Source of the DNA: Polyangium mundeleinium
GTDB taxonomy: Bacteria; Myxococcota_A; Polyangia; Polyangiales; Polyangiaceae
Reading direction: 5' to 3'
Length of the DNA stretch: 64,000 nt
Assembly: GCF_028369105.1 (NCBI RefSeq)
Contig: NZ_JAQNDO010000001.1
Location: 11,502,501 to 11,566,500, forward strand
The translations under genes were made by a program, and so were the position numbers. Of this stretch, positions 23,045 through 62,554 are shown one piece after another (within the stretch, counting starts at the first letter, position 1; the number at the start of each line of letters is the position of its first letter). The notes beneath the pieces were generated by a model that saw only the letters and a program-made list of their open reading frames with translations, searched no databases and was not told the origin of the DNA.

Positions 23045-23453
23045 CTGCGCGAGGAGACCCATGCAAGGACCGTCACACACTCCACCGGAACCCCCACCCC
23101 CTTCCGACCCCTTCCCCCGCGCAACCTCCTTCGTCGAAGCGCTGCGGAACGGACGCCGGGTTCGCATCCTCACGACGGAACCGTGCATGAAGGCGGGGAG
23201 ATGTTGCGCACATCGCTTCCGGTCGTGGCGGGAGGACCCAAACCGATGCGCGTATCGCTTCCGGTCGTGCAGGGAGGACCCGAACCGATACGCGTATCGC
23301 TTCAGGTCGTGCAGGGAGGACCCGAACCGATGCGCACATCGCTTCCGGTCGTGCAGGGAGGACCCGAACCGATACGCGCATCGCTTCCGGTCGTGCGGGG
23401 AGGACCCGAACCGATACGCGCATCGCTTCAGGTCGTGCAGGGAGGACCGGACG
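23045..23453. repeat. Duplicated block, copy A, with six 42-bp tandem repeats
   Basis: Nearly identical to 44571-44979. The first part (23045-23160) is the tail region of the 261-residue gene family joined directly to its 5' flank, so the gene body is deleted. The second part (23207-23458) is six 42-bp units, typically starting CGCGTATCGC and ending ACCCGAACCGATA. The first unit starts CGCACATCGC and the last ends ACCGGACG, in both copies. Units differ at a few positions. No stop codon occurs in several frames, but I see no start, signal or composition supporting a protein. The remainder of 22904-23657 holds nothing else I can support. Confidence 0.85.
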
Positions 23454-43463: not shown

Positions 43464-44230
43464 CTAACTTCTCCTCATCAACCTCCTCCCGGCCGCCTCC
43501 AAGTCCTCCTTGAGGTGATGCGCATACCGCTGCGTCGTCGCCAGATGCTTATGGCCCGCCATCCTCTGCACGACGTGCACCGGCACCCCCACCCGCAACC
43601 ACATCGTGATCGCGTAGTGCCGCAAGCAATACACCGACCACCCCCCGACCCCGACCTTCCGCCGCACCCTCTCGAACGCCTGCACGATCCCATACTGCCC
43701 CCACGCCCTCCCCCGCTCATTCAGCGCCACAAACTCCTCCCGCCCCGCACCCCCCGCCCCCTCGCTCCCCGCCAACAACCTCCCCAGCTCCGGCGCCACC
43801 GGCACTTCGCGCTGCCCCGTCTTCGGCGTGTGCGTCTCCCCATGCGACCGCCCCTCCCGCACGCTCACGAACCCGCCCACGGCCTCCCCCTCCCGCCGCA
43901 ACCGCACATCCCGCCATCGCAGCGCCCGCACCTCATTCGGCCTTAGCCCCGCATACGCCATCCACGCAAAACTCACCCGATGCCGCTCCCTCGCGGCCGC
44001 GAGGATCCGCTCGACCTCCTCGTCCGACGCAATCTCCAGAATGCTCTGCCCCACCGCCTTGAGCCGCGGCATCCCCTCGGGCATCGCGCGCAGATACTTC
44101 CGCGCCACCGCGAATCGCAGCACCGACCGGATCACCACCTGCACATGGTTCCGCGTCGCCCGCGCGAGCCCCCGCTCCGAAAGCTCCAGGTCGAGCTGCG
44201 CCGCATTCCACCCCGGCGGAAACGAAGGCG
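43464..44230 (-). pseudogene. Tyrosine recombinase, N-terminally truncated (g)
   Basis: The catalytic half of the recombinase with box I YAGLRPNEVRALRW, HTPKTGQREVPVAPELG, box II WSVYCLRHYAITMWLRVGVP, AGHKHLATTQRYAHHLKED with the nucleophile Tyr, and tail GRRLMRRS. Homology extends upstream of ATG 44144 (WNAAQLDLELSERGLARATR) to a stop at about 44226, so the N-terminal DNA-binding part is missing. It is about 90% identical by eye to copy (b). It borders the NLR gene, 128 bp from its start; that gap holds only its presumed promoter. Confidence 0.8.
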
Positions 44231-44570: not shown

Positions 44571-44979
44571 CTGCGCGAGGAGACCCATGCAAGGACCGTC
44601 ACACACTCCACCGGAACCCCTACCCCCTTCCGATCCCTTCCCCCGCGCAGCCTCCTTCGTCGAAGCGCTGCGGGACGGACGCCGGGTTCGCATCCTCACG
44701 ACGGAACCGTGCATGGAGGCGGGGAGATGTTGCGCACATCGCTTCCGGTCGTGCAGGGAGGACCCGAACCGATACGCGTATCGCTTCCGGTCGTGCAGGG
44801 AGGACCCAAACCGATACGCGTATCGCTTCCGGTCGTGCAGGGAGGACCCGAACCGATGCGCGTATCGCTTCCGGTCGTGCAGGGAGGACCCGAACCGATA
44901 CGCGTATCGCTTCCGGTCGTGCAGGGAGGACCCAAACCGATACGCGTATCGCTTCAGGTCGTGCAGGGAGGACCGGACG
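44571..44979. repeat. Duplicated block, copy B, with six 42-bp tandem repeats
   Basis: Copy B of the block at 23045-23453. The array runs 44733-44979 in six 42-bp units, first unit CGCACATCGC and last unit ending ACCGGACG as in copy A. The order of variant units differs slightly between copies. The stop codon of the acyltransferase gene (44989) lies 9 bp beyond the array, so the array forms the 3' flank of that gene. Confidence 0.85.
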
Positions 44980-44988
44980 TGATGTGCG

Positions 44989-46404
44989 TCACGCCATCGC
45001 GCACGCGTCGTCCAAACGCAGACTCCCCGGCGCCCGGAGCCGCGCGCGCGTCTCGGCACGCAGCGCATAAATCTCCTGCGCAGCCGGCCCCCACGCGTAC
45101 CGACCGGGCTGCGCCTCCACCAGGATCCCGCGCTCACCCAGCGCCGCATACACATCCCCAACCGTCGGCAGATGCGCCGCGGGGTACGCCGCGACGAGCG
45201 CCTTCGGGCTCACGTGTTCCAACGCACGCTCAGGCTCCCCCATCTGGTGCGTGACGAGCGCGTAATCCAGCGCGATGGGCTCGAACAACGCCTCGACGAC
45301 GCGTTGCAGCCGCGTATCACGCACATCCTCGGCCGTCCCCGGATCGAACCACCGATGGCGCGCGAGATGATCCCGCACGGCCACATGGTGCCCAAGGAGC
45401 ACACGCGCATCCCCATGAAACCAGTGCATCCACTGGTTCTTCAGCGATTGCTGAAGCACGGGCGACGCGAGCTGCGGGGCCTCCAGATCACTCTCCAGCA
45501 CGCATGCCCCCCGGCGACGAAGAGCGGCCGCGAGCCACGCCTCGTCCACGCCTTCGAGCTCGGCGTGGTTGAGAAACATGCGCAGGTGGAAGCTCGACAC
45601 CGTCGTCTGGCGGACCTGCTCGGCGACGATCTCCCGGGCGAGGGGCTGCACCTCCGTCGAGGGCTCCAGCGTGAGCGGCGCGCCGCATGCGATATGGACA
45701 CGGCCGAGCTGCACCTCGTCGCGCGCCATCTGCGTGAGCCATTCGAGCGTCGCGGTAAGCGACATCGGCGGACGCGCGCCGCCCCCGAGCTCCCCTTCGA
45801 ATGCGCCCTCCTCGGGGACACGATCGTACGAAATCGCGATGGGCAACACGACGAAACGCCGCCCCGTCGCTTGCAGCGCCCGCAAAAGCCCGCGCCGAGG
45901 GGGCAATGCCCGCCGCGCGCGGCTGCGTTGCCCCTCGACGAAGAACATCACGGACGCGTCGCGCGCGACGAGCCGCTCGAGCTTGTAGCTCACCTCGCGC
46001 ACCTCCTTGCCGACGCCCCGGCGCACGTAAAACGCCTGGGATTGCTCGAGCAGGCGCCCGATGAGCGGGATGTTCGAGAACTCCTCGGCCGCGGCGATGT
46101 GCGGCACCGGGATGCCGAGCTCCGGGTGCTGGAAGCAGAGGTAGCTGCCGAGGAGGAAATCGAAATAGCTGCGGTGCGAAGGCGCGAGGACGAAGAGGGC
46201 GCCCGGCGGGGCCGCGTCGACCGCGCGGCGGAACGAGCGGCGGTCGAACGTCACGACCGACGTGCACCGCCGCAGCGTCTTGCGCAGCCCGTAGGCGAGC
46301 GTGCCAATCGCCCAATTGCCCGGCCTCCGCGAGAGGGTCCACGGCAGGTCCTGGTTCCCGTCGTCGTGGTCACGCCCCGCGAGCGTCTGCTCCGTTTCCT
46401 TCAT
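44989..46404 (-). CDS. PlsB/GNPAT-family acyltransferase (probable DHAP or glycerol-3-P acyltransferase)
   Basis: A 471-residue cytoplasmic or membrane-bound acyltransferase. Acyltransferase blocks are visible in order: block I APSHRSYFDFLL (HX4D), block II with the AFYVRRGVGKEVREVSYKLE segment, block III FFVEGQRSRARR, and block IV VLPIAISYDRVPEEGAF. These resemble human GNPAT more than the short PlsC proteins. The C-terminal half (about 250-471) is helical. The gene lies 16 bp downstream of agpS on the same strand, so it probably supplies acyl-DHAP for ether-lipid synthesis. A start at 46404 fits this spacing. Confidence 0.8.
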   Translation of the reverse strand: MKETEQTLAGRDHDDGNQDLPWTLSRRPGNWAIGTLAYGLRKTLRRCTSVVTFDRRSFRRAVDAAPPGALFVLAPSHRSYFDFLLGSYLCFQHPELGIPVPHIAAAEEFSNIPLIGRLLEQSQAFYVRRGVGKEVREVSYKLERLVARDASVMFFVEGQRSRARRALPPRRGLLRALQATGRRFVVLPIAISYDRVPEEGAFEGELGGGARPPMSLTATLEWLTQMARDEVQLGRVHIACGAPLTLEPSTEVQPLAREIVAEQVRQTTVSSFHLRMFLNHAELEGVDEAWLAAALRRRGACVLESDLEAPQLASPVLQQSLKNQWMHWFHGDARVLLGHHVAVRDHLARHRWFDPGTAEDVRDTRLQRVVEALFEPIALDYALVTHQMGEPERALEHVSPKALVAAYPAAHLPTVGDVYAALGERGILVEAQPGRYAWGPAAQEIYALRAETRARLRAPGSLRLDDACAMA

Positions 46405-46420
46405 GGCAGCGCCTCCTCGA

Positions 46421-48277
46421 TTACCCTTCGCCGTGACCCAGCTTCACCTCGCCGAGGACACCATGATTCCCTGCGCCGAACAGGTTGTCCGGGTCGACGG
46501 CCTGCTTCACGTCGCGCATGAACGCGCGCGCGCCCTCCGAGTAGATTTCCTTCACGAAGTCCTGCCGGATCTTGCCGACGCCGTGATGGTGGGAGAGCGA
46601 GCCCCCGGCGGCGAGGATCTCCTCGCGCGCGGCGTGCTCCATCTCGCTGTATTGACGCACGGGGTCTTCGACGCCCTTCGCGTAAAAGCCGAGGTAGAAG
46701 TAAATGCAGACGCCCGTCGGATACACCTGCGTGATGCGCCCGGTGAAGAAGGGCTTGCCCGGCAAGCGCCGCTGCTCGTGCTCGCGCAGCACGCGCTTGT
46801 GGACCCGGTCGTAGAGCTCCAGCGCGCGGCTCCACGGGACGCTCGTCTCGAAGCTCTCGGCGATCGCCCAATGCTCGAACGTGAGGTCGCGGATGTACGC
46901 AATGCCGAAGGTGAGCTGATAGCCGCGCTCGCCATTCGCCGCGCCGGCCTTCAGGCCGCCGTGCTGCTTGGCGATGCGGTAGAGCGTCTTTTCCTGGAAC
47001 TCGACCTCGTCTTTCGTCCCTTCGAAGACGATCGTGGCGACGGCGAGCTGGTGCGGATCAAAGCCCTTGATCTTGGTGACGAGGAGCTGCTCCGCGTGGC
47101 TCTTCGCATGCGCCAGGAGCCCTGTCTTCTTCGGCTTGAGCGCCTGACCGAAATGAAACTGCGTGTTATCCATGACGCGCACGCTCGCGGGCACGGCGCC
47201 GGCGCGCTGGAGGTCGTACAGGAAGGCGAGGCCGCGCTCGAGGTCGGGGAAGATGACGCTGCCGTAGCGCTGCACCTCGGGCACGGGGAAGAGCTTGACG
47301 ATGGCGGTCGTGATGATGCCGTAGTTGCCTTCGCTCCCGAACATGAAGTTCCGCGGATTGGTGCCAATGCTCTCGCGCGGCGCCACCTGCGGCCGCTCGA
47401 CGACGCCACGCGCAGTGACGACCTGCATATCGAGGACGAGGTCCTCGATGTTGCCATACCGGTTCTTCTTCATGCCGCTCGCGTTGGTCGCGATCCACCC
47501 GCCGAGCGTCGAGAATTCGAGGCTGTCGGGCTCGTGCCCCATGGTGAGCCCGTGCTTCGCGAGCTCGGCGACGATGTGCCGGCCCGTCGCGCCGGCCTCG
47601 ATGCAGGCCATGCGGTTCGTGGGATCGATCCAGAGGACCTTGTTCATGCGGCGCATGTCGACGGCAAGGACGACGCGCTTTTCATCGATCGACAGGCGCA
47701 AGGCATCCGTGACGTTCGTGCCGCCGCCGAACGGAATGAGGCACGCGCCGTGCTCCTTCGCGACCTCCGTCAGCTTCACGACCTCGTCATGCGACGTCGG
47801 AAAGACGACGAGATCGGGCACGCGCGGGAGGCGCTCGTAACGGATGGCCCAGATCTCGGCGCCGGTGTGCCCGTGGCCGCGGCGCAGGCGAACGAGCGGA
47901 TCACTCGAGATCTGATCGTCCTTGAGGAAGCCTTTCAGCCCAGCGACGACCGCGCTCGTGTCCATGGCCTCGGGGACCGGCGGGGGATAATGCGGCTCAT
48001 TGCGATTGCCGTAGGAGAGCGGCGCGGAGAGCGTGGCCGAAATCCAAGGCAAGAGCGACGGGAGGTCGACATTGCTGATGTTGTAGCGGCGGCCGGTGAG
48101 CACGACGTTGCCGTTCGGCTTCACGACGAAACGCGTATCGGCAAAGCCCCAGCCATCCAGGCTCTCGTCGTCTTTGGGCAGCGGCGCCGGGCTCGGGATG
48201 ATGCGCGTGCTCGGGGCGCGTGCGCCGCGCGGAGGGAGGGTCGAGCCGGATGCGTTGTCGCGGTTGTCGTGTGCCAT
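46421..48277 (-). CDS. agpS: Alkylglycerone-phosphate synthase (AGPS), FAD-dependent
   Basis: A 618-residue flavoenzyme that exchanges the acyl chain of acyl-DHAP for a fatty alcohol, making the ether bond. The N-terminal WGFADTRFVVKPNGNVVLTG is AGPS-like. The PCMH/VAO-type FAD domain shows VVFPTSHDEVVKLTEVAKEH, IPFGGGTNVTDAL, EPDSLEFSTLGGWIATNASG and FGSEGNYGIIT. The C-terminal substrate domain ends with GGSLSHHHGVGKIRQ, the His-rich active-site loop of AGPS, and DPDNLFGAGNHG. Length and motif order match the eukaryotic and myxobacterial enzymes. It is the first gene of an operon with the acyltransferase. ATG 48277 is preferred. Confidence 0.92.
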   Translation of the reverse strand: MAHDNRDNASGSTLPPRGARAPSTRIIPSPAPLPKDDESLDGWGFADTRFVVKPNGNVVLTGRRYNISNVDLPSLLPWISATLSAPLSYGNRNEPHYPPPVPEAMDTSAVVAGLKGFLKDDQISSDPLVRLRRGHGHTGAEIWAIRYERLPRVPDLVVFPTSHDEVVKLTEVAKEHGACLIPFGGGTNVTDALRLSIDEKRVVLAVDMRRMNKVLWIDPTNRMACIEAGATGRHIVAELAKHGLTMGHEPDSLEFSTLGGWIATNASGMKKNRYGNIEDLVLDMQVVTARGVVERPQVAPRESIGTNPRNFMFGSEGNYGIITTAIVKLFPVPEVQRYGSVIFPDLERGLAFLYDLQRAGAVPASVRVMDNTQFHFGQALKPKKTGLLAHAKSHAEQLLVTKIKGFDPHQLAVATIVFEGTKDEVEFQEKTLYRIAKQHGGLKAGAANGERGYQLTFGIAYIRDLTFEHWAIAESFETSVPWSRALELYDRVHKRVLREHEQRRLPGKPFFTGRITQVYPTGVCIYFYLGFYAKGVEDPVRQYSEMEHAAREEILAAGGSLSHHHGVGKIRQDFVKEIYSEGARAFMRDVKQAVDPDNLFGAGNHGVLGEVKLGHGEG

Positions 48278-53018: not shown

Positions 53019-53519
53019 TTATTCTTGGCCGCCGACGGGCGCCCCGGTGACCTGGATGTTGTTGCTGAGCAGCCCGAAGATGCCCGTGATCCCCGCGGGC
53101 ACGTCGCTGCGCGACATCGTCAGCGTGAACTTGATGTTGGTCGTCTCGGACGTGGCGTCGTTCTTCGACTGCGCGTCCGCCGCGATCTTCGCGAGCAGCT
53201 TCGGCGCTTGCGAATCGCCCTGGCTCATCTCCACGATCTTCGTCGTGAACGAGATCTCCGCCTTGTCGATGCCGAGAATGGGGATCGGGACGAGCGTCAA
53301 GAGCGGTACGGAGACGGTGTATCGCTTGACGCCCACGCCCGGCACGACCTGCTGGTAGCTGAACTGCACCGTGCGCAGCTCGCCCTTCTCGTCGAAGCCC
53401 ACGTTCTGAATGAAGTCCGACGTGGCCCTGGCGGCCATTCCATCCGCATCGACGACGTCGCGGACGAGGCTCCCCACGAGCTGACTCAACGGGATCTGAG
53501 AAACGGTGTTCTCCGGCAT
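53019..53519 (-). CDS. DUF2589-family protein
   Basis: A 166-residue protein: PENTVSQIPLSQLVGSLVRD, VVDADGMAARATSDFIQNVG, QFSYQQVVPGVGVKRYTVSV and the signature PLLTLVPIPILGIDKAEISF. The last segment is NIKFTLTMSRSDVPAGITGI. The PLLTLVPIP segment is shared with the 211-residue paralogue at 53877. DUF2589 proteins are of unknown function. Confidence 0.8.
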   Translation of the reverse strand: MPENTVSQIPLSQLVGSLVRDVVDADGMAARATSDFIQNVGFDEKGELRTVQFSYQQVVPGVGVKRYTVSVPLLTLVPIPILGIDKAEISFTTKIVEMSQGDSQAPKLLAKIAADAQSKNDATSETTNIKFTLTMSRSDVPAGITGIFGLLSNNIQVTGAPVGGQE

Positions 53520-53528
53520 GACGGACTC

Positions 53529-53819
53529 CTACACGATCGCGTGGGGCGCTTCGGCCGTGACTCCCTGGAGCCGCGGCACGCCCGACGCGTCGATCTCGAT
53601 CGACATCTTCACCAAGAGGAGCGGCCCCAGCTCCGCTCGTTCCTTCTCCGCGATCGGCCATTCGAACGTGCACACGACGTGGGTCGGGCGCAGGTTCGAA
53701 CGAAAACGCTCCACCTGCTGCGCTCCGGAGAGCTCGCGCGCAGGCACGCGAACGAGCGCGAGCCCTCGCTCGATTTCATGCAGCACTGCAGTGACCATCC
53801 GCTCGACTCGCTCCTGCAT
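53529..53819 (-). CDS. Hypothetical protein in the DUF2589 operon
   Basis: A 96-residue protein: MQERVERMVTAVLHEIERGL, then ALVRVPARELSGAQQVERFR, CTFEWPIAEKERAELGPLLL. No signal or motif. It lies 9 bp before the DUF2589 gene at 53519 and 57 bp after the upstream one, so it is one operon. Confidence 0.65.
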   Translation of the reverse strand: MQERVERMVTAVLHEIERGLALVRVPARELSGAQQVERFRSNLRPTHVVCTFEWPIAEKERAELGPLLLVKMSIEIDASGVPRLQGVTAEAPHAIV

Positions 53820-53876
53820 CGACGCTCACCCCGAACCGCAAGCAGGTGGAGATCGCGACCATCGCCCTCGTTCAGC

Positions 53877-54512
53877 TCACGTCGTCGTCTTGCCGGGCAC
53901 CGCCTTGATGGCGTCGTTCAGCATGTTGAGCACCTTCGAGGTGCCCGCAGGCATGTCGTGCCCCGTGGCGTGCACGTTGACGTTGACCGTGTACTCGACG
54001 GAGTACTTCGAGTCCCTCGTCGAGCTCGAGTCCGACTTGCTCGAATAGCTCCCCTTGAAATTGACCTTGTCGAAGAGGAAGCCGACGGATCCGCTGGTCT
54101 CGCCGCCCGCCTGGCTCTCCGAGCTTTGCTTCGTGTCGAAGCTCGACGTGGCATTGATGGCCGCCTTGAAGTTGATGTCCATCGTCTCGACGAGCAGGTA
54201 CGGGATCGGTACCAGGGTCAAGAGCGGCACCGTGAGCTGCGCCGTCTCGCCGCCTCGCGAGAATGTGAACGTGACGGACATCACGGCCGTCGGCTTTGCA
54301 TTGTCCGTCGACATCTGGGGGTTGCCGTCTTTGTCGAGGCCAAAGAGGACACCCAGCACGTACTTCAGCGTGGCGTTCGCCGCCAAGGTCTGCGCTTCGA
54401 CGCCCGCGACGAGCGGACCGCCGATGATCGCCCCGAAGGGGATCTGACTGAGGAGCTGCGTCGCGGCTTGCTGATCGCCGCCGGTGGCTTCGCCGGATCC
54501 TGTATCGCCCAT
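53877..54512 (-). CDS. DUF2589-family protein, first gene of operon
   Basis: A 211-residue protein with a long variable N-terminus (MGDTGSGEATGGDQQAATQL, LSQIPFGAIIGGPLVAGVEA), then the shared PLLTLVPIPYLLVETMDINF signature and a Ser-rich C-terminal half (SSKSDSSSTRDSKYSVEYTV, HATGHDMPAGTSKVLNMLND). A Shine-Dalgarno (AAAGGAGTC) precedes ATG 54512. It is a paralogue of the protein at 53019. Confidence 0.8.
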   Translation of the reverse strand: MGDTGSGEATGGDQQAATQLLSQIPFGAIIGGPLVAGVEAQTLAANATLKYVLGVLFGLDKDGNPQMSTDNAKPTAVMSVTFTFSRGGETAQLTVPLLTLVPIPYLLVETMDINFKAAINATSSFDTKQSSESQAGGETSGSVGFLFDKVNFKGSYSSKSDSSSTRDSKYSVEYTVNVNVHATGHDMPAGTSKVLNMLNDAIKAVPGKTTT

Positions 54513-55437
54513 GGGAAGACTCCTTTTTTATGCCGCCGGGCGCCGAAAACGGAGGCACCACCGGAGCACCGCAAGAACAAGGCAAGCAGGTCGAGATACG
54601 CCGCTTGGCCGAAAAGAACGATTCATGGCGCCCACGCACGACACACGTCGCCGTCGCGTGGGATCACGCCCGCGAATCACGGCAAAGCAGCGAGACGCAG
54701 ACCCCCGAGCCAAAGAAGTCGCGAGCCCCGGCTGCAGCTATCGGCCGCTCGCCGGTGCTCTACAGATACGGCCGGTCGATCCTCGGGAGCAACAAATTTT
54801 CGTCCCACGACAGGATCGTTACGAATTCATACGTTTCAGGCCCGCCGAGCCCGGTCGTTTGACAACGAGATTCAGCGTATTTTCCCGCGAGATTCGCGCC
54901 ATTGTCGTTCGAGTCAAACGGGGGTGATCGACACGTACGGCTCGACCAACGATATCGGCGCGTCGCGCGACGCCACGTTTCGCCGCGGATTCGATCCGCA
55001 ATCGCGCTCGGACGCACCCCCGCGGCGCCCCTCCCTGGATCACCTCCGATCCACCTGCCCGTTGCCAAACGCGGATCGCGCCCGTCCCTGGTCACGCGAC
55101 AGCGCAGGTTCGGCCACGATCGATCGCCATCCTGCGAGCGGCGACGCACCCTCGCCCGCCTCCGCGAGGGCCTCCGCTCCCGCACGCCCCGCGCGTCGCG
55201 CCCAACCGTTCCATGAGACCGACGCCGGCCGCCGCGGGGCCTTCCGCCCGCGCCCCCAGGTCCCTCCCCCCTGTCAAGACCCATCTTGGTCGTGCCTCCG
55301 CGCGCGCCGGCCCACCTCGCCGCGGCGCAGCACTATTCCGTATCGTCAGAACGGAACGAAATTGCTGGTCGGGCTGGCGGCTGGCAACTACGTTACGTCA
55401 CCCGTCCCGGGCGGGCCCGAGGAGGAAAGCAGCATCG
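54513..55437. other. Long intergenic region, no gene recognised
   Basis: A 925-bp gap between the divergent DUF2589 operon and the radical SAM gene. It carries promoters for both sides; an 8-bp inverted word CGTTTGAC/GTCAAACG lies near 54853-54920. Open frames present are low-complexity Arg/Pro-rich and antisense to each other. I cannot support a gene here. Confidence 0.4.
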
Positions 55438-57306
55438 ATGTTGTCCGTGCGCCATCTGGAGAAATTCGTCACGGCCTCCGCAAACCGAGTCTGGCCGGTG
55501 ATGCAAAGGCTGAACACGCTCGGCCCCGAGCCTTTGCCGTTCAAACCTCGATGGAGTGATCGCCCCATCCCGCGCGGCAAGGAGCGGACGAAGCCGCCGC
55601 TCGGCTGGCCACGGATGACGGACAGCCTGTGCCCCACCTGCGTCAAGGAAGCGCGCGCGGAAATCCTGCGCGGCGACGCAGACTGGACGAAGCTCGTCAC
55701 GGACAAGCCCGGGGAGATCAAGGCGCACATCGTCGAGCGCGACGGCCAGATCCGGATGGAGAAGGAGTGCCCGAAGCACGGGCGCGTGAGCGACGTCCTC
55801 TCGATCGACCCGAAATTCCTCGAGCGGATCGAGAGCCTCTTCCAGGGCCGCGACGTGGCGATGACGCCCGACCGTATCCACCAGCACGGTTCGAGCTCGA
55901 TCCAGTACGGCCGCGGCGCGGTGCTCACGGTCGACCTCACGAATCGCTGCAACATGATGTGCGACCCGTGCTTCATGGACGCGAATCAGGTCGGCTACGT
56001 GCACGAGCTCTCCTGGGAGGAGGTCACGCAGATCCTCGACGACGCGGCCGAGGTACGGCCGCGTCGGCAGATGTCGATCCAGTTCTCCGGCGGCGAGCCC
56101 ACGCTCTCGCCCCATTTCCTCGACGCGATCCGCTACGCCCGCAAGAAGGGGTATTTCGCCGTGCAATGCGCGACGAACGGGCTGCGCTTCGCGCAGGAGC
56201 CCGGCTTCGCCCAGCAATGCAAGGAGGCGGGCCTGCGCATGGCCTACCTGCAGTTCGACGGGGTCACGAACGAGGCGAACAGCCATCGCAAGATCGCGAA
56301 CCTCTACGACGTCAAGCTCCGGGCGATCGAGGAGCTCGCGGCGGCGGGCATCGACGTCATCCTGGTCGTGACGGTCGTCAATGGCGTGAACAACGACATG
56401 ATCGGGCCGATCATCGAGTTCGCCATCGAGAACGCCGACAAGGTCACGGTCGTGAGCTTCCAGCCCGTGAGCTTCACCGGGCGGGACGAGGACATTTCCG
56501 ACGAGCTACGCGAACAGCAAAGGTACACGCTGAGCCACCTCGCGCGCGACGTGAAGGCGCAGACCGGCGTGACCGAGCCCTTGCGCGATTGGTTCCCGCT
56601 CTCGGCGCTCTCGCCGTTCGGCGACGTCGTTGATCTGCTCGACGGGCCGGACAAGGATTTCGGTCAGCTCAATTGCGGGTGTCACCCGAACTGCGGCATT
56701 GGCACCGTGCTCTTCGTCAACAAGAAGACGAAGCAGATGGTCCCCTTGCTCGAGTTCCTCGACATGGAAGGGATCCTGCGGGATTTCCGGACGATCTTCG
56801 AGGCGGGCCGGGGCTCGAAATGGACGAAGGCGCAGGTGCTCACGAGCATCCTCCGCCATTACAAGCCGGAGAAGGCGCCGCCCGGGTTCGACGTGAAGAC
56901 GCTCGTGAAACAATTCATGAGCCAGACCGGCGCCGCGCACGCGGGCGAGAGCGACGCGAAGGAGTACGAGTGGCGCGTGCTCTTCGTGGCCGGCATGTGG
57001 TTCCAGGATCTCTTCAATTACGATTTCCGCCGGACGGAGATGTGCATCATCCCCTACGGCACGCAGATGGGCGAGATCAGCTTCTGCGCGTACAACACGG
57101 GCGTGGGCTGGCGCAACGTGCTCGAAAAGATCAAGGCGAACGCCACGGTCGCCGAGTGGTACCGCAAATACGGCAGGCACCCGATCTACGCGAAGAACAA
57201 GGACCTCGCCCTGCCCGACTTCGAGAACTCCCTCACCGTGAAGGAACACGAACTCGCCAAGCAGGAGCGGAAGAAGGCCGTCCGCTTGCCGATCGTGCCG
57301 TCCTAG
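55438..57306 (+). CDS. Radical SAM enzyme, Tes/MJ0619-like
   Basis: A 622-residue protein. A metal-type N-terminal unit is present (CPTC, Cys65 and Cys68, and CPKH, Cys111 and His114), as in tetraether-lipid synthase (Tes/MJ0619). The radical SAM site follows as TNRCNMMCDPCFMDANQ with CX3CX2C at Cys171, Cys175 and Cys178. Then come GGEPTLSP, the loop VVTVVNGVNNDMIGPIIEFA, and a C-terminal Cys-containing GQLNCGCHPNCGIGTVLFVN. Relatives catalyse C-C coupling or modification of lipid tails. The start 55438 has GAGGAGG about 11-17 nt upstream; Met60 just before CPTC is an alternative. It diverges from the DUF2589 operon. Confidence 0.8.
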   Translation: MLSVRHLEKFVTASANRVWPVMQRLNTLGPEPLPFKPRWSDRPIPRGKERTKPPLGWPRMTDSLCPTCVKEARAEILRGDADWTKLVTDKPGEIKAHIVERDGQIRMEKECPKHGRVSDVLSIDPKFLERIESLFQGRDVAMTPDRIHQHGSSSIQYGRGAVLTVDLTNRCNMMCDPCFMDANQVGYVHELSWEEVTQILDDAAEVRPRRQMSIQFSGGEPTLSPHFLDAIRYARKKGYFAVQCATNGLRFAQEPGFAQQCKEAGLRMAYLQFDGVTNEANSHRKIANLYDVKLRAIEELAAAGIDVILVVTVVNGVNNDMIGPIIEFAIENADKVTVVSFQPVSFTGRDEDISDELREQQRYTLSHLARDVKAQTGVTEPLRDWFPLSALSPFGDVVDLLDGPDKDFGQLNCGCHPNCGIGTVLFVNKKTKQMVPLLEFLDMEGILRDFRTIFEAGRGSKWTKAQVLTSILRHYKPEKAPPGFDVKTLVKQFMSQTGAAHAGESDAKEYEWRVLFVAGMWFQDLFNYDFRRTEMCIIPYGTQMGEISFCAYNTGVGWRNVLEKIKANATVAEWYRKYGRHPIYAKNKDLALPDFENSLTVKEHELAKQERKKAVRLPIVPS

Positions 57307-60811: not shown

Positions 60812-62554
60812 ATGAACGCCCCGCTGCGCGTCCCTCTCGGCATCGACGACTTCCAGAAGGTCCGGGAGGGCGGTCTGCTCTACGTCGACAAGACGCACCT
60901 CGTGACGGACTTGCTCGAAAAGGCCGGCGCCGAGGTCGTCCTGCTCCCGCGGCCGCGGCGGTTCGGCAAGAGCCTGAACCTCTCGATGGTCCGCTGCTTC
61001 TTCGAGAAGCGCGCGGAGGACCTCTCGCCTCTCTTTCGGGACCTCCGGGTTTGGCAGGCCGGCGACGCAGTCCGCGCGCATTTCCAGCGGTATCCGGTCA
61101 TTCACTTGACGATGAAGGGCGCCAAGCAGGCGACCTTCGAGGCGTGCTGGAAGACCATCCGCGAGAAGATCGAGGCGCTCTTCCGGGAGCACAAGGCGCT
61201 GCTCACGAGCGGCGCGCTCGATGCACGGGAGGAGGAGAAGTACCGCGCCATCCTCGATGGCACCGCCGACGACGTGCTGTACGGGCGGGCTCTCCTCGAC
61301 CTTTGCCACTACCTCCACCGAGCGCACGGCGAGCGCGTGCTCCTGCTCATCGACGAGTACGACGAGCCCATCCACGCGGGGTACACGCACGGGTACGCGC
61401 CCCGCATCCTGGATTTCTGCCGCGCCTTCTACGGTGAAGGATTAAAGGGCAATCCGCACCTCTTCCGCGCGGTGCTCACCGGTATTTTGCGCGTCGCGCG
61501 CGAGAGCATCTTCTCCGGCCTGAACAACGTCACCGTCTATTCCCTGCTGCGCTCGGAGTTCAATACCTGCTTCGGCTTCACCGAGCCGGAGGTCGAGCGC
61601 CTCCTCACCGCCGCCGGCCGGACGGACCGTCTGGAGACGCTGCGCGCCTGGTACAACGGGTATCTCTTCGGAGGCGAGGTCATCTACAATCCCTGGTCTG
61701 TCCTCAACTTCCTGGCCGCCGAGGACAAGGACCCCGAGCCCTACTGGCTTTCGACGAGCTCGAACGATCTCATCCGCGAGCTCCTCCAAGAGCGCGCCGT
61801 CGAGCTCGAACCCCTCTTCGAAGCCCTCCTGACCGGGGACTCCGTGGAAAAGGTGCTCGACGAGCACGTCCCGCTCGGGGAGCTGCGCACGAGCGAAAAC
61901 GCGCTCTGGAGCCTGCTCGTCTTCGCCGGATACCTGAAGGCCGAGCGCCACTCGCGCGGGCCCATGGAGCGCCCCATGCACCGGCTCTCGATCCCCAATC
62001 GAGAGGTGCGCGAGCTTTACACGAGCACCTTCCGGGGATGGATGGCCGCGCGCCTCGGCGGTCGGGGCGGGGCTCTCGATGCGCTGCTCGACGCATTGCT
62101 GCGGGGAGACGCGGAGCGATTGGAGCGGCTGCTCCAGGCGTTCGTGACGAACGTCCTTTCGCACCATGACGTCGGGTTCTTCGGGCCGGAGCGCGTGTAC
62201 CAGGCGTTCATCGTGGGCCTGCTGGCGACGCTGGAGCCGGACTACCAGGTCCGCTCGGACCGCGAATCCGGCCACGGGCGCGCGGACGTCCTCGTGCGCC
62301 CGGCTCGTCCGGGAAAGCCGGGCGTCGTGCTCGAATTGAAGGTCGTCAAGGCCGCGCGCCGCGCCCCGGAGAAAGCGCTCGCCGAAGGCCTCGCGCAGAT
62401 CCGCGAGAAGGAGTACGCCGCCGAGCTACGGGCCGCAGGGGCCGAGCCGGTGCACGCGTTCGCCGCCGCGTTCGACGGAAAACGCGTATGGGTCCGCGCC
62501 GCGACGCTCTCGCCGGAGGAGCCCTCCCCCCGGAAAAAAGCGCGCAAGCGCTGA
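60812..62554 (+). CDS. AAA-ATPase-like protein with C-terminal PD-(D/E)XK nuclease fold
   Basis: A 580-residue protein of the PF09820/DUF1703 type. N-terminal LYVDKTHLVTDLLEKAGAEV, then the P-loop-like RPRRFGKSLNLSMV, an LLLIDEYDEP Walker B at about 185, and ENLYTSTFRGWMAARL-type middle helices. The C-terminal nuclease domain shows ELKVVKAARRAPEKALAEGL (PD-(D/E)XK with Glu-x-Lys) and RVWVRAAT. These proteins are common, mostly unassigned; some may be mobile-element or conflict-system related. ATG 60812 is used; it is convergent with the membrane protein at 62561. Confidence 0.8.
   Translation: MNAPLRVPLGIDDFQKVREGGLLYVDKTHLVTDLLEKAGAEVVLLPRPRRFGKSLNLSMVRCFFEKRAEDLSPLFRDLRVWQAGDAVRAHFQRYPVIHLTMKGAKQATFEACWKTIREKIEALFREHKALLTSGALDAREEEKYRAILDGTADDVLYGRALLDLCHYLHRAHGERVLLLIDEYDEPIHAGYTHGYAPRILDFCRAFYGEGLKGNPHLFRAVLTGILRVARESIFSGLNNVTVYSLLRSEFNTCFGFTEPEVERLLTAAGRTDRLETLRAWYNGYLFGGEVIYNPWSVLNFLAAEDKDPEPYWLSTSSNDLIRELLQERAVELEPLFEALLTGDSVEKVLDEHVPLGELRTSENALWSLLVFAGYLKAERHSRGPMERPMHRLSIPNREVRELYTSTFRGWMAARLGGRGGALDALLDALLRGDAERLERLLQAFVTNVLSHHDVGFFGPERVYQAFIVGLLATLEPDYQVRSDRESGHGRADVLVRPARPGKPGVVLELKVVKAARRAPEKALAEGLAQIREKEYAAELRAAGAEPVHAFAAAFDGKRVWVRAATLSPEEPSPRKKARKR

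What the first reader, a model, noticed from the sequence alone, without database searches (positions are those of the whole stretch)
55438..57306. Tes-like radical SAM enzyme near the ether-lipid module
The N-terminal CPxC...CPKH unit plus CX3CX2C core resembles archaeal tetraether synthase (Tes) and bacterial homologues linked to membrane-spanning lipids. It lies about 7 kb from the AGPS operon. If it couples lipid tails, this organism may make membrane-spanning or branched ether lipids.
Basis: partly seen in the sequence, partly recalled or inferred. Interest (0 to 1): 0.6.

Follow-up and report, generated by a model that had tools for sequence, protein, structure and literature searches.

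The report
Bacterial cousin of tetraether lipid synthase
A soil myxobacterium (Polyangium) carries an enzyme built like the archaeal enzyme that welds two lipid tails together, of a distinct type that it shares with soil Acidobacteria, a phylum known to make membrane-spanning lipids, so this group may be an overlooked source of such lipids.

Summary
Window 55438-57306 (+) encodes an intact 622-aa radical SAM protein under purifying selection, with the CPTC...CPKH and CX3CX2C motifs. It is a true relative of archaeal tetraether synthase Tes: best PDB match MjTes (E 2.4e-69; AlphaFold2 model aligns over 479 residues at 2.4 A, Z 41.9; next fold Z 21.6). It keeps the inferred ligands of the C-terminal cluster that holds the coupling intermediate, plus the Met and Tyr near it. 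[quoted passage not shown]

It belongs to a separate, fully supported clade ("type B", my label): Polyangia, many Acidobacteriota, one Latescibacterota MAG in a capped sample.

The ether-lipid neighbourhood argument fails. AGPS occurs in 11 of 108 family genomes, 7 of 68 with this gene and 4 of 40 without, and lies near it in only two.

Best explanation: tail-to-tail sp3-sp3 coupling of phospholipid tails, giving (iso)diabolic-acid-type membrane-spanning lipids. This is inferred from homology and distribution; no lipid was measured and Mss could not be compared.

The parts
55438..57306 (+). type B Tes-like radical SAM protein, 622 aa (P0001)
   Evidence: fold match; dN/dS
55420..55425 (+). AGGAGG, probable ribosome-binding site 12 bases before the ATG
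   Evidence: sequence
55441..55521 (+). predicted N-terminal helix (residues 2-28), amphipathic (best 18-residue moment 0.49; 95th percentile of the protein 0.45); outside the part aligned to MjTes; possible membrane contact (inference)
   Evidence: AlphaFold2 model; moment; aligned range 57-581
55630..55779 (+). rubredoxin-like metal site C65-X2-C68 ... C111-X2-H114 (Zn_ribbon_HMPTM)
   Evidence: equivalent to MjTes C9, C12, C33, H36 (PMC9433317 passages)
55858..55920 (+). residues 141-161, where MjTes has its N-terminal [4Fe-4S] cluster (C73, C77, C80, His); here HQHGSSSIQYGRGA without cysteine
55948..55971 (+). radical SAM motif C171-X3-C175-X2-C178
56458..56487 (+). FQPVSFTGRD, motif shared with archaeal Tes and used for the genome scan
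56674..56694 (+). CGCHPNC (C413, C415, C419); C419 aligns with the cysteine kept in Tes; C413 is absent from the 24 non-type-B rows
56995..57087 (+). C-terminal cluster region: Met520 (=MjTes Met439), Cys536, Tyr540 (=MjTes Tyr459), Cys550
   Evidence: ligand assignment by alignment with MjTes
46421..48277 (-). AGPS-like FAD-linked oxidase; considered as partner and rejected (proximity not conserved)
44989..46404 (-). acyltransferase (PF01553) next to the AGPS-like gene; not part of the finding

Best explanation
It is a bacterial membrane-spanning-lipid synthase of a distinct Tes subfamily ('type B'). Two phospholipids place one saturated tail each in a hydrophobic cavity beside the radical SAM cluster. 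A 5'-deoxyadenosyl radical takes H from one tail end; that carbon is parked as a C-S bond on the C-terminal [4Fe-4S] cluster (C419, C536, C550, labile Met520); a second 5'-dA radical activates the other tail, which attacks and forms the C-C bond. In Polyangium the likely product is an (iso)diabolic-acid-type C30-C32 dicarboxylic or dialkyl chain spanning the membrane. Shown here: homology, predicted fold, conserved ligands, loss of the N-cluster, clade, distribution, purifying selection. Inferred: chemistry, substrate, product.
For: Best PDB match is MjTes/GDGT-MAS (2.4e-69). The AlphaFold2 model (mean pLDDT 88.2, pTM 0.90) aligns to 7tom over 479 of 498 residues at 2.4 A, Z 41.9, the next fold being MoaA at Z 21.6. 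The three C-cluster cysteines, Met520 and Tyr540 are kept in 29 of 29 rows of P0001 and its myxobacterial orthologues, and in 102, 102 and 101 of 102 type B rows; the two paralogues of this genome that I aligned have His for Met, and one has Asn for Tyr. Lloyd 2022 (passages) shows MjTes using this cluster for the C-S intermediate and binding bacterial phosphatidic acid. Type B abounds in Acidobacteriota; Granulicella aggregans and Acidipila rosea have it as their only match to P0001 at E <= 1e-20. Edaphobacter strains contain 11.8-30.4% iso-diabolic acid (PMC11354219, passages), and E. aggregans has one Tes homologue at 32% identity (PMC8941075, passages), which fits type B (four rows, 28-32% to three archaeal Tes) and not type A (four rows, 40-45%).
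Against: Below the curated Tes cut-off (349 vs 450 bits). One of four metal sites of MjTes is gone. Met439 and Tyr459 are not essential in MjTes (M439A, Y459F active), so their conservation is a marker only. No lipid-gene neighbour is conserved in Polyangia or Acidobacteria among the families I identified. Type B is also in MAGs labelled Candidatus Solibacter usitatus (L104, L135), while cultured S. usitatus makes brGDGTs but no detectable iso-diabolic acid (PMC10087280, passages). Mss homologues were reported in 11 of 97 acidobacterial and 12 of 347 myxococcotal Black Sea MAGs (PMC11868695, passages), so another enzyme could do this job. One search for diabolic acid with Polyangium and Sorangium gave no report. 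E. aggregans itself was not in my sample. Polyangia are thought to be mainly straight-chain (recalled), so an iso product is not assured.
Confidence: 0.6

Rival explanations
1. Same active site, other lipid product: type B couples tails within one phospholipid (macrocycle), cross-links chains mid-chain, or attaches a tail to another hydrophobic molecule, and so makes no membrane-spanning diacid.
For: Tes itself makes both macrocyclic archaeol and GDGT (PMC9433317 and PMC8941075 passages). Type B has lost the N-cluster and stands on a long stem (2.23 changes per column), which could mean a changed reaction.
Against: The C-cluster set is unchanged. The N-cluster was also lost in 5 of 18 archaeal rows that otherwise look like Tes, one of them scoring 572 bits with the Tes model.
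Confidence: 0.2
2. Non-lipid substrate: the protein is a radical SAM maturase of the TrsS/heme-modification kind that only shares ancestry with Tes.
For: The TrsS model scores 226 bits; Zeng 2022 notes Halobacteria with Tes homologues and no GDGT (passages).
Against: It fits Tes better than TrsS (349 vs 226 bits); no partner gene stands out as conserved nearby (ORFs of 90 aa or more only, so a short substrate peptide would be missed); fold and C-cluster follow MjTes.
Confidence: 0.13
3. One reading: part of an ether-lipid module with the AGPS operon 7 kb away.
For: The two lie 7.2 kb apart in the window and about 10 kb apart in one other genome, G085.
Against: AGPS is in 11 of 108 family genomes, 7 of 68 with the gene and 4 of 40 without; G086, G087 and G089 of the same genus have the gene and no AGPS match; in the other five genomes with both (G088, G007, G099, G068, G070) they are on different contigs or megabases apart; AGPS is in none of the 19 other fetched loci, which reach up to 8 kb from the gene.
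Confidence: 0.05

Closest known systems
Tetraether synthase Tes / GDGT-MAS (MJ0619, PDB 7tol, 7tom; NCBIfam NF045702)
   Same: Fold (Z 41.9 over 479 residues), rubredoxin-like site, radical SAM site, C-cluster cysteines, Met439 and Tyr459 equivalents, FQPVSFTGR motif.
   Different: About 32% identity; 349 bits against a cut-off of 450; N-terminal [4Fe-4S] cluster cysteines absent; Cys413; N-terminal helix of about 27 residues outside the aligned part.
Bacterial Tes homologues of Zeng et al. 2022 (Acidobacteria, Proteobacteria)
   Same: Those authors already listed 456 bacterial homologues at E < 1e-50 and proposed a role in brGDGT synthesis (passages). Type B is probably among them.
   Different: In the passages I saw they do not separate a type A (40-42% identity) from a type B (about 32%, no N-cluster); the words 'myxococc' and 'deltaproteobacteria' do not occur in the main text.
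Membrane-spanning lipid synthase Mss (Thermotogota, Clostridia)
   Same: Couples tails of bacterial lipids; superposed models are said to share the catalytic architecture of Tes (PMC13274423 passages).
   Different: Not compared: no Mss sequence could be reached.
TrsS radical SAM (seleno)protein family (NF045646)
   Same: Same superfamily, 226 bits.
   Different: Cut-off 490 not met; poorer and shorter match than Tes.

Membership tests
Tes (tetraether synthase) equivalog | NCBIfam NF045702 curated cut-off 450 bits | tested here: not met
   349 bits; 0 of 108 family genomes over the cut-off; for comparison type B Granulicella 321, type A Terriglobia MAG 582, Methanothermococcus 682
Tes (tetraether synthase) equivalog | N-terminal auxiliary [4Fe-4S] site CX3CX2C plus His | tested here: not met
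   none of the three cysteines in 29 of 29 rows of P0001 and its orthologues, nor in 102 of 102 type B rows
Tes-like superfamily | radical SAM CX3CX2C and rubredoxin-like C-X2-C...C-X2-H | tested here: met
Tes-like superfamily | C-terminal cluster cysteines with Met439 and Tyr459 equivalents | tested here: met
   C419, C536, C550, M520, Y540; ligands assigned by alignment
Tes-like superfamily | overall fold of GDGT-MAS | tested here: met
   AlphaFold2 model, Z 41.9, 2.4 A, 479 residues
Tes-like superfamily | tail-to-tail coupling activity on lipids | not testable with these tools
   needs lipid analysis or enzymology
Mss | clade with characterised Mss proteins | not tested
   no Mss sequence reachable
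TrsS | NF045646 cut-off 490 bits | tested here: not met
   226 bits

The most novel reading that the evidence does not exclude
Type B is the iso-diabolic-acid synthase of aerobic soil Acidobacteria, a Tes that works without the N-terminal cluster, and Polyangia (Polyangium and related soil myxobacteria) are an unrecognised soil source of membrane-spanning lipids, overlooked where the fatty-acid procedure used cannot detect such diacids.
Probability: 0.35. Interest if true: 0.8.

Novelty: new variant of a known kind. Interest (0 to 1): 0.55.

Why it matters
The producers and the coupling enzyme of bacterial branched tetraethers and iso-diabolic acid, on which soil and lake palaeothermometers rest, are not settled (PMC10087280, PMC8941075, passages). 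This report names one protein clade that is a concrete candidate in Acidobacteria, shows by which residues it can be told from canonical Tes, and predicts coupled-tail lipids in a class of soil myxobacteria for which my one search found no report. A culturable type strain, Polyangium fumosum DSM 14668, carries a 98% identical copy, so the prediction can be tested directly.

Tried and rejected
AGPS linkage: rejected by profile and neighbourhood. I count 11 AGPS genomes (44-100% identity, two of them fragments); the tally says 12 at E <= 1e-60, the twelfth (G005, 32%) being left out by me.

Neighbours in 20 Polyangia loci (families seen in at least 4 groups, the own genus counted once): a HEAT-repeat gene in the own genus and in G046, G050, G019; and an ABC-transporter set (ABC_tran; ABC_transp_aux/DUF7088; DUF4340) near the gene, in changing position and orientation, in G047, G056 and G055 with parts in G049 and G329. 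Neither is a lipid gene. Neighbours in 86 type B loci of the genome scan (families in at least 5 loci shown): a QueG gene in 12, on the opposite strand, a 375-aa family without Pfam match in 7, three smaller families in 5 each, not identified by a family search.

Ger/PlsA-like gene of the own genome (C1:10405527-10409120, two BcrAD_BadFG stretches plus DUF2229): present at E <= 1e-100 in 64 of 68 family genomes with type B and 22 of 40 without (Fisher p 2e-6). The list hides two genomes without a match; I took them by elimination as G097 and G098. The contrast is not corrected for shared ancestry or genome completeness, so I use it only as a hint. The type B set of 68 was read by me by score (67 genomes of 321-362 bits plus G071, a partial frame at 67% identity); G091 at 271 bits was taken as a paralogue.

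Viral contigs gave only distant radical SAM fragments (21 loci; none). Plasmids gave 33 records, the three that cover 80% of the query being below 28% identity. For the ligand table 126 rows were used: 20 of the 117 scan loci and L048 of the 29 orthologue loci were dropped as cut off, and L193 as noise; L122 and L181 look frame-broken or misaligned and stayed in (hence radical SAM cysteines in 100 of 102). In that table type B is defined by Cys413 itself (the 29 rows of P0001 and its orthologues by origin), so Cys413 is no independent result; N-cluster loss, Cys415, His416 and Cys419 (102 of 102 each) are; the full string CGCH is in 96 of 102. The tree used 76 rows and that used 58 (paralogues, L182 and part of the Acidobacteria left out; N-cluster and CGC columns dropped). 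Polyangia are one clade at 97 SH-aLRT but only 68/96, so a single origin there is not firm; treekit also warns of the long row L103.

Paper searches for prior reports: (listings). Passages seen in PMC8941075, PMC9433317, PMC11868695, PMC13274423, PMC10087280, PMC11354219, PMC8436480 and PMC4885859 (the last two gave nothing on diabolic acid beyond a reference; PMC8436480 was searched for fatty acids only). Sinninghe Damste 2011/2014/2018, Lorenzen 2014 and Sahonero-Canavesi 2022 were seen only as cited there.

Full report
What was checked. The ORF at 55438-57306 (+) is real and complete: 622 aa, with an AGGAGG before the ATG, Radical_SAM and HMPTM zinc-ribbon domains, and dN/dS of 0.08-0.20 against five relatives. 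The genome has 13.25 Mb, and the protein is 98% identical to one of Polyangium fumosum DSM 14668, so the window is from Polyangium or very close to it.

Relation to Tes. The best match in the PDB is GDGT-MAS of Methanocaldococcus jannaschii, E 2.4e-69; MoaA follows at about 1e-7. The NCBIfam Tes model scores 349 bits, under its cut-off of 450; TrsS scores 226. An AlphaFold2 model made with 56 sequences has mean pLDDT 88.2 and pTM 0.90. It aligns to 7tom over 479 of 498 residues at 2.4 A with Z 41.9; the next fold, MoaA, has Z 21.6. So the predicted fold is that of Tes over nearly its whole length; a predicted N-terminal helix of about 27 residues lies outside the aligned part (57-581).

Metal sites. 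GDGT-MAS holds a rubredoxin-like iron (C9, C12, C33, H36), an N-terminal [4Fe-4S] (C73, C77, C80, His), the radical SAM cluster and a C-terminal [4Fe-4S] with labile Met439 near Tyr459; the C-cluster carries the C-S intermediate (PMC9433317, passages). In P0001 the rubredoxin-like site (C65, C68, C111, H114), the radical SAM site (C171, C175, C178), the C-cluster cysteines as inferred by alignment (C419, C536, C550), Met520 and Tyr540 are all present. The N-cluster cysteines are all absent; the stretch reads HQHGSSSIQYGRG. Met439 and Tyr459 are dispensable in MjTes (M439A, Y459F still active), so I use them as family markers, not as proof of activity.

A separate clade. I scored 126 rows: P0001, 28 myxobacterial orthologues, 96 scan loci and MjTes. 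I call the 102 rows with Cys413 type B: 32 Myxococcota, 68 Acidobacteriota, 1 Latescibacterota and 1 MAG labelled Bordetella. None of them has any of the three N-cluster cysteines, and all have Cys415, His416 and Cys419. Of the other 24 (type A), 19 have the three N-cluster cysteines and 5, archaeal MAGs L151, L154, L179, L187 and L196, have none; these five form a clade within the Thermoplasmata rows. Type B, as sampled in the tree (34 rows), stands at 100/100 support on a branch of 2.23 changes per column, with the N-cluster and CGC columns removed; next to it lie type A rows of Acidobacteriota and one Latescibacterota. In the Myxococcota sample it is confined to the own class: 32 of 377 genomes have a copy of 59-100% identity, own genome included, and the other matches at E <= 1e-20 are at or below 35%. 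In the own family I count 68 of 108 genomes with it, by score.

Why lipids. The three next-best matches in this genome belong to the same superfamily (195-257 bits with the Tes model). The two that I aligned keep the N-cluster but have His in place of Met439, and one has Asn for Tyr459. P0001 is therefore the one of those aligned that looks like a lipid coupler at the C-cluster. Outside Polyangia, type B in this sample is mainly an acidobacterial protein. Most Acidobacteria make iso-diabolic acid (PMC10087280, passages); in Edaphobacter it is 11.8-30.4% of the fatty acids (six columns of a table in PMC11354219, passages). Zeng 2022 reports one Tes homologue in Edaphobacter aggregans at 32% identity, but 42% and 40% for Koribacter and Solibacter (PMC8941075, passages). 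Four type B rows are 28-32%, and four acidobacterial type A rows 40-45%, identical to three archaeal Tes (Methanolobus, Methanosalsum, MjTes; not the MA_1486 that Zeng used), so the E. aggregans protein fits type B. This is an inference across papers; E. aggregans was not in my sample. Against a simple rule: S. usitatus makes brGDGTs without detectable iso-diabolic acid and has two Tes homologues, and two MAGs labelled Candidatus Solibacter usitatus carry type B. PMC11354219 also says that the procedure used for some Edaphobacter strains does not allow detection of iso-diabolic acid, so such acids can be missed.

The neighbourhood. No gene is conserved beside it throughout. In 20 Polyangia loci of up to 18 kb a HEAT-repeat gene recurs in the own genus and three other genomes, and an ABC-transporter set in three to five others, in changing position. 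In 86 type B loci from the scan a QueG gene recurs in 12 and an unknown 375-aa family in 7. The AGPS gene is in 11 of 108 family genomes, 7 of 68 with type B and 4 of 40 without. In the genus, G086, G087 and G089 have type B and no AGPS match; in G088 they are on different contigs; only G000 and G085 have them near each other (7 and 10 kb). Ether bonds could still arise elsewhere: a Ger/PlsA-like protein with two activase stretches is in 86 of 108 family genomes, and a 1617-aa reductase/AMP-ligase/acyltransferase frame resembles ElbD in its domains (the ElbD domains are recalled).

Mechanism and standing. Best reading: type B performs the Tes reaction, sp3-sp3 coupling of two tails through a cluster-bound intermediate, on bacterial phospholipids. 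Shown: homology, predicted fold, ligands, clade, distribution, selection. Inferred: substrate, product, and that the N-cluster is dispensable; the last is made plausible by five archaeal rows that lost it too, one scoring 572 bits with the Tes model. Not settled: Mss could not be compared and its homologues are reported from some acidobacterial and myxococcotal MAGs (PMC11868695, passages), lipids were not measured, and the product may be iso- or straight-chain derived. The existence of bacterial Tes homologues is known; I found no separate description of this clade or of such lipids from Polyangia in the searches named under Tried and rejected, in a library that lacks many subscription papers.

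Noticed in passing
window 23207-23448 and 44738-44974: Two arrays of the same 42-bp unit, 21 kb apart, the second beside a phage-integrase-family ORF (43464-44144); a 33-base core of the unit matches 9 places in the whole genome at up to 2 mismatches, all in these two arrays. They may bound a mobile segment.
   Followed up: partly
window 44989-48277: Acyltransferase + AGPS-like pair, adjacent on one strand; the AGPS-like gene is sporadic in the family (11 of 108 genomes), so probably gained or lost often.
   Followed up: partly
L151, L154, L179, L187, L196: Tes of Methanomassiliicoccales-like archaeal MAGs has lost the N-terminal cluster cysteines, apparently independently of type B; L154 still scores 572 bits with the Tes model.
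   Followed up: partly
L182: A MAG record titled Bordetella parapertussis holds a type B gene that sits deep among Acidobacteria; most likely a mislabelled MAG.
   Followed up: no
window 53019-54512: Two DUF2589 proteins in a row, matched beside the gene in G086 and G088 but not in the fetched locus of G089.
   Followed up: no
window 60812-62554: AAA-ATPase-like + PD-(D/E)XK nuclease protein, found only in the window's own genome among the 20 loci compared.
   Followed up: no
L133 and L118 genomes (G458, G460): Two acidobacterial MAGs (Blastocatellia, Pyrinomonadaceae) have two matches each of 56% and 54% identity to P0001, probably two type B copies.
   Followed up: no
L004 (G000:C1:3244097): One Tes-superfamily paralogue of this genome reads to a stop before the C-terminal cysteine motif in the frame I translated; it may be shortened or broken.
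   Followed up: no
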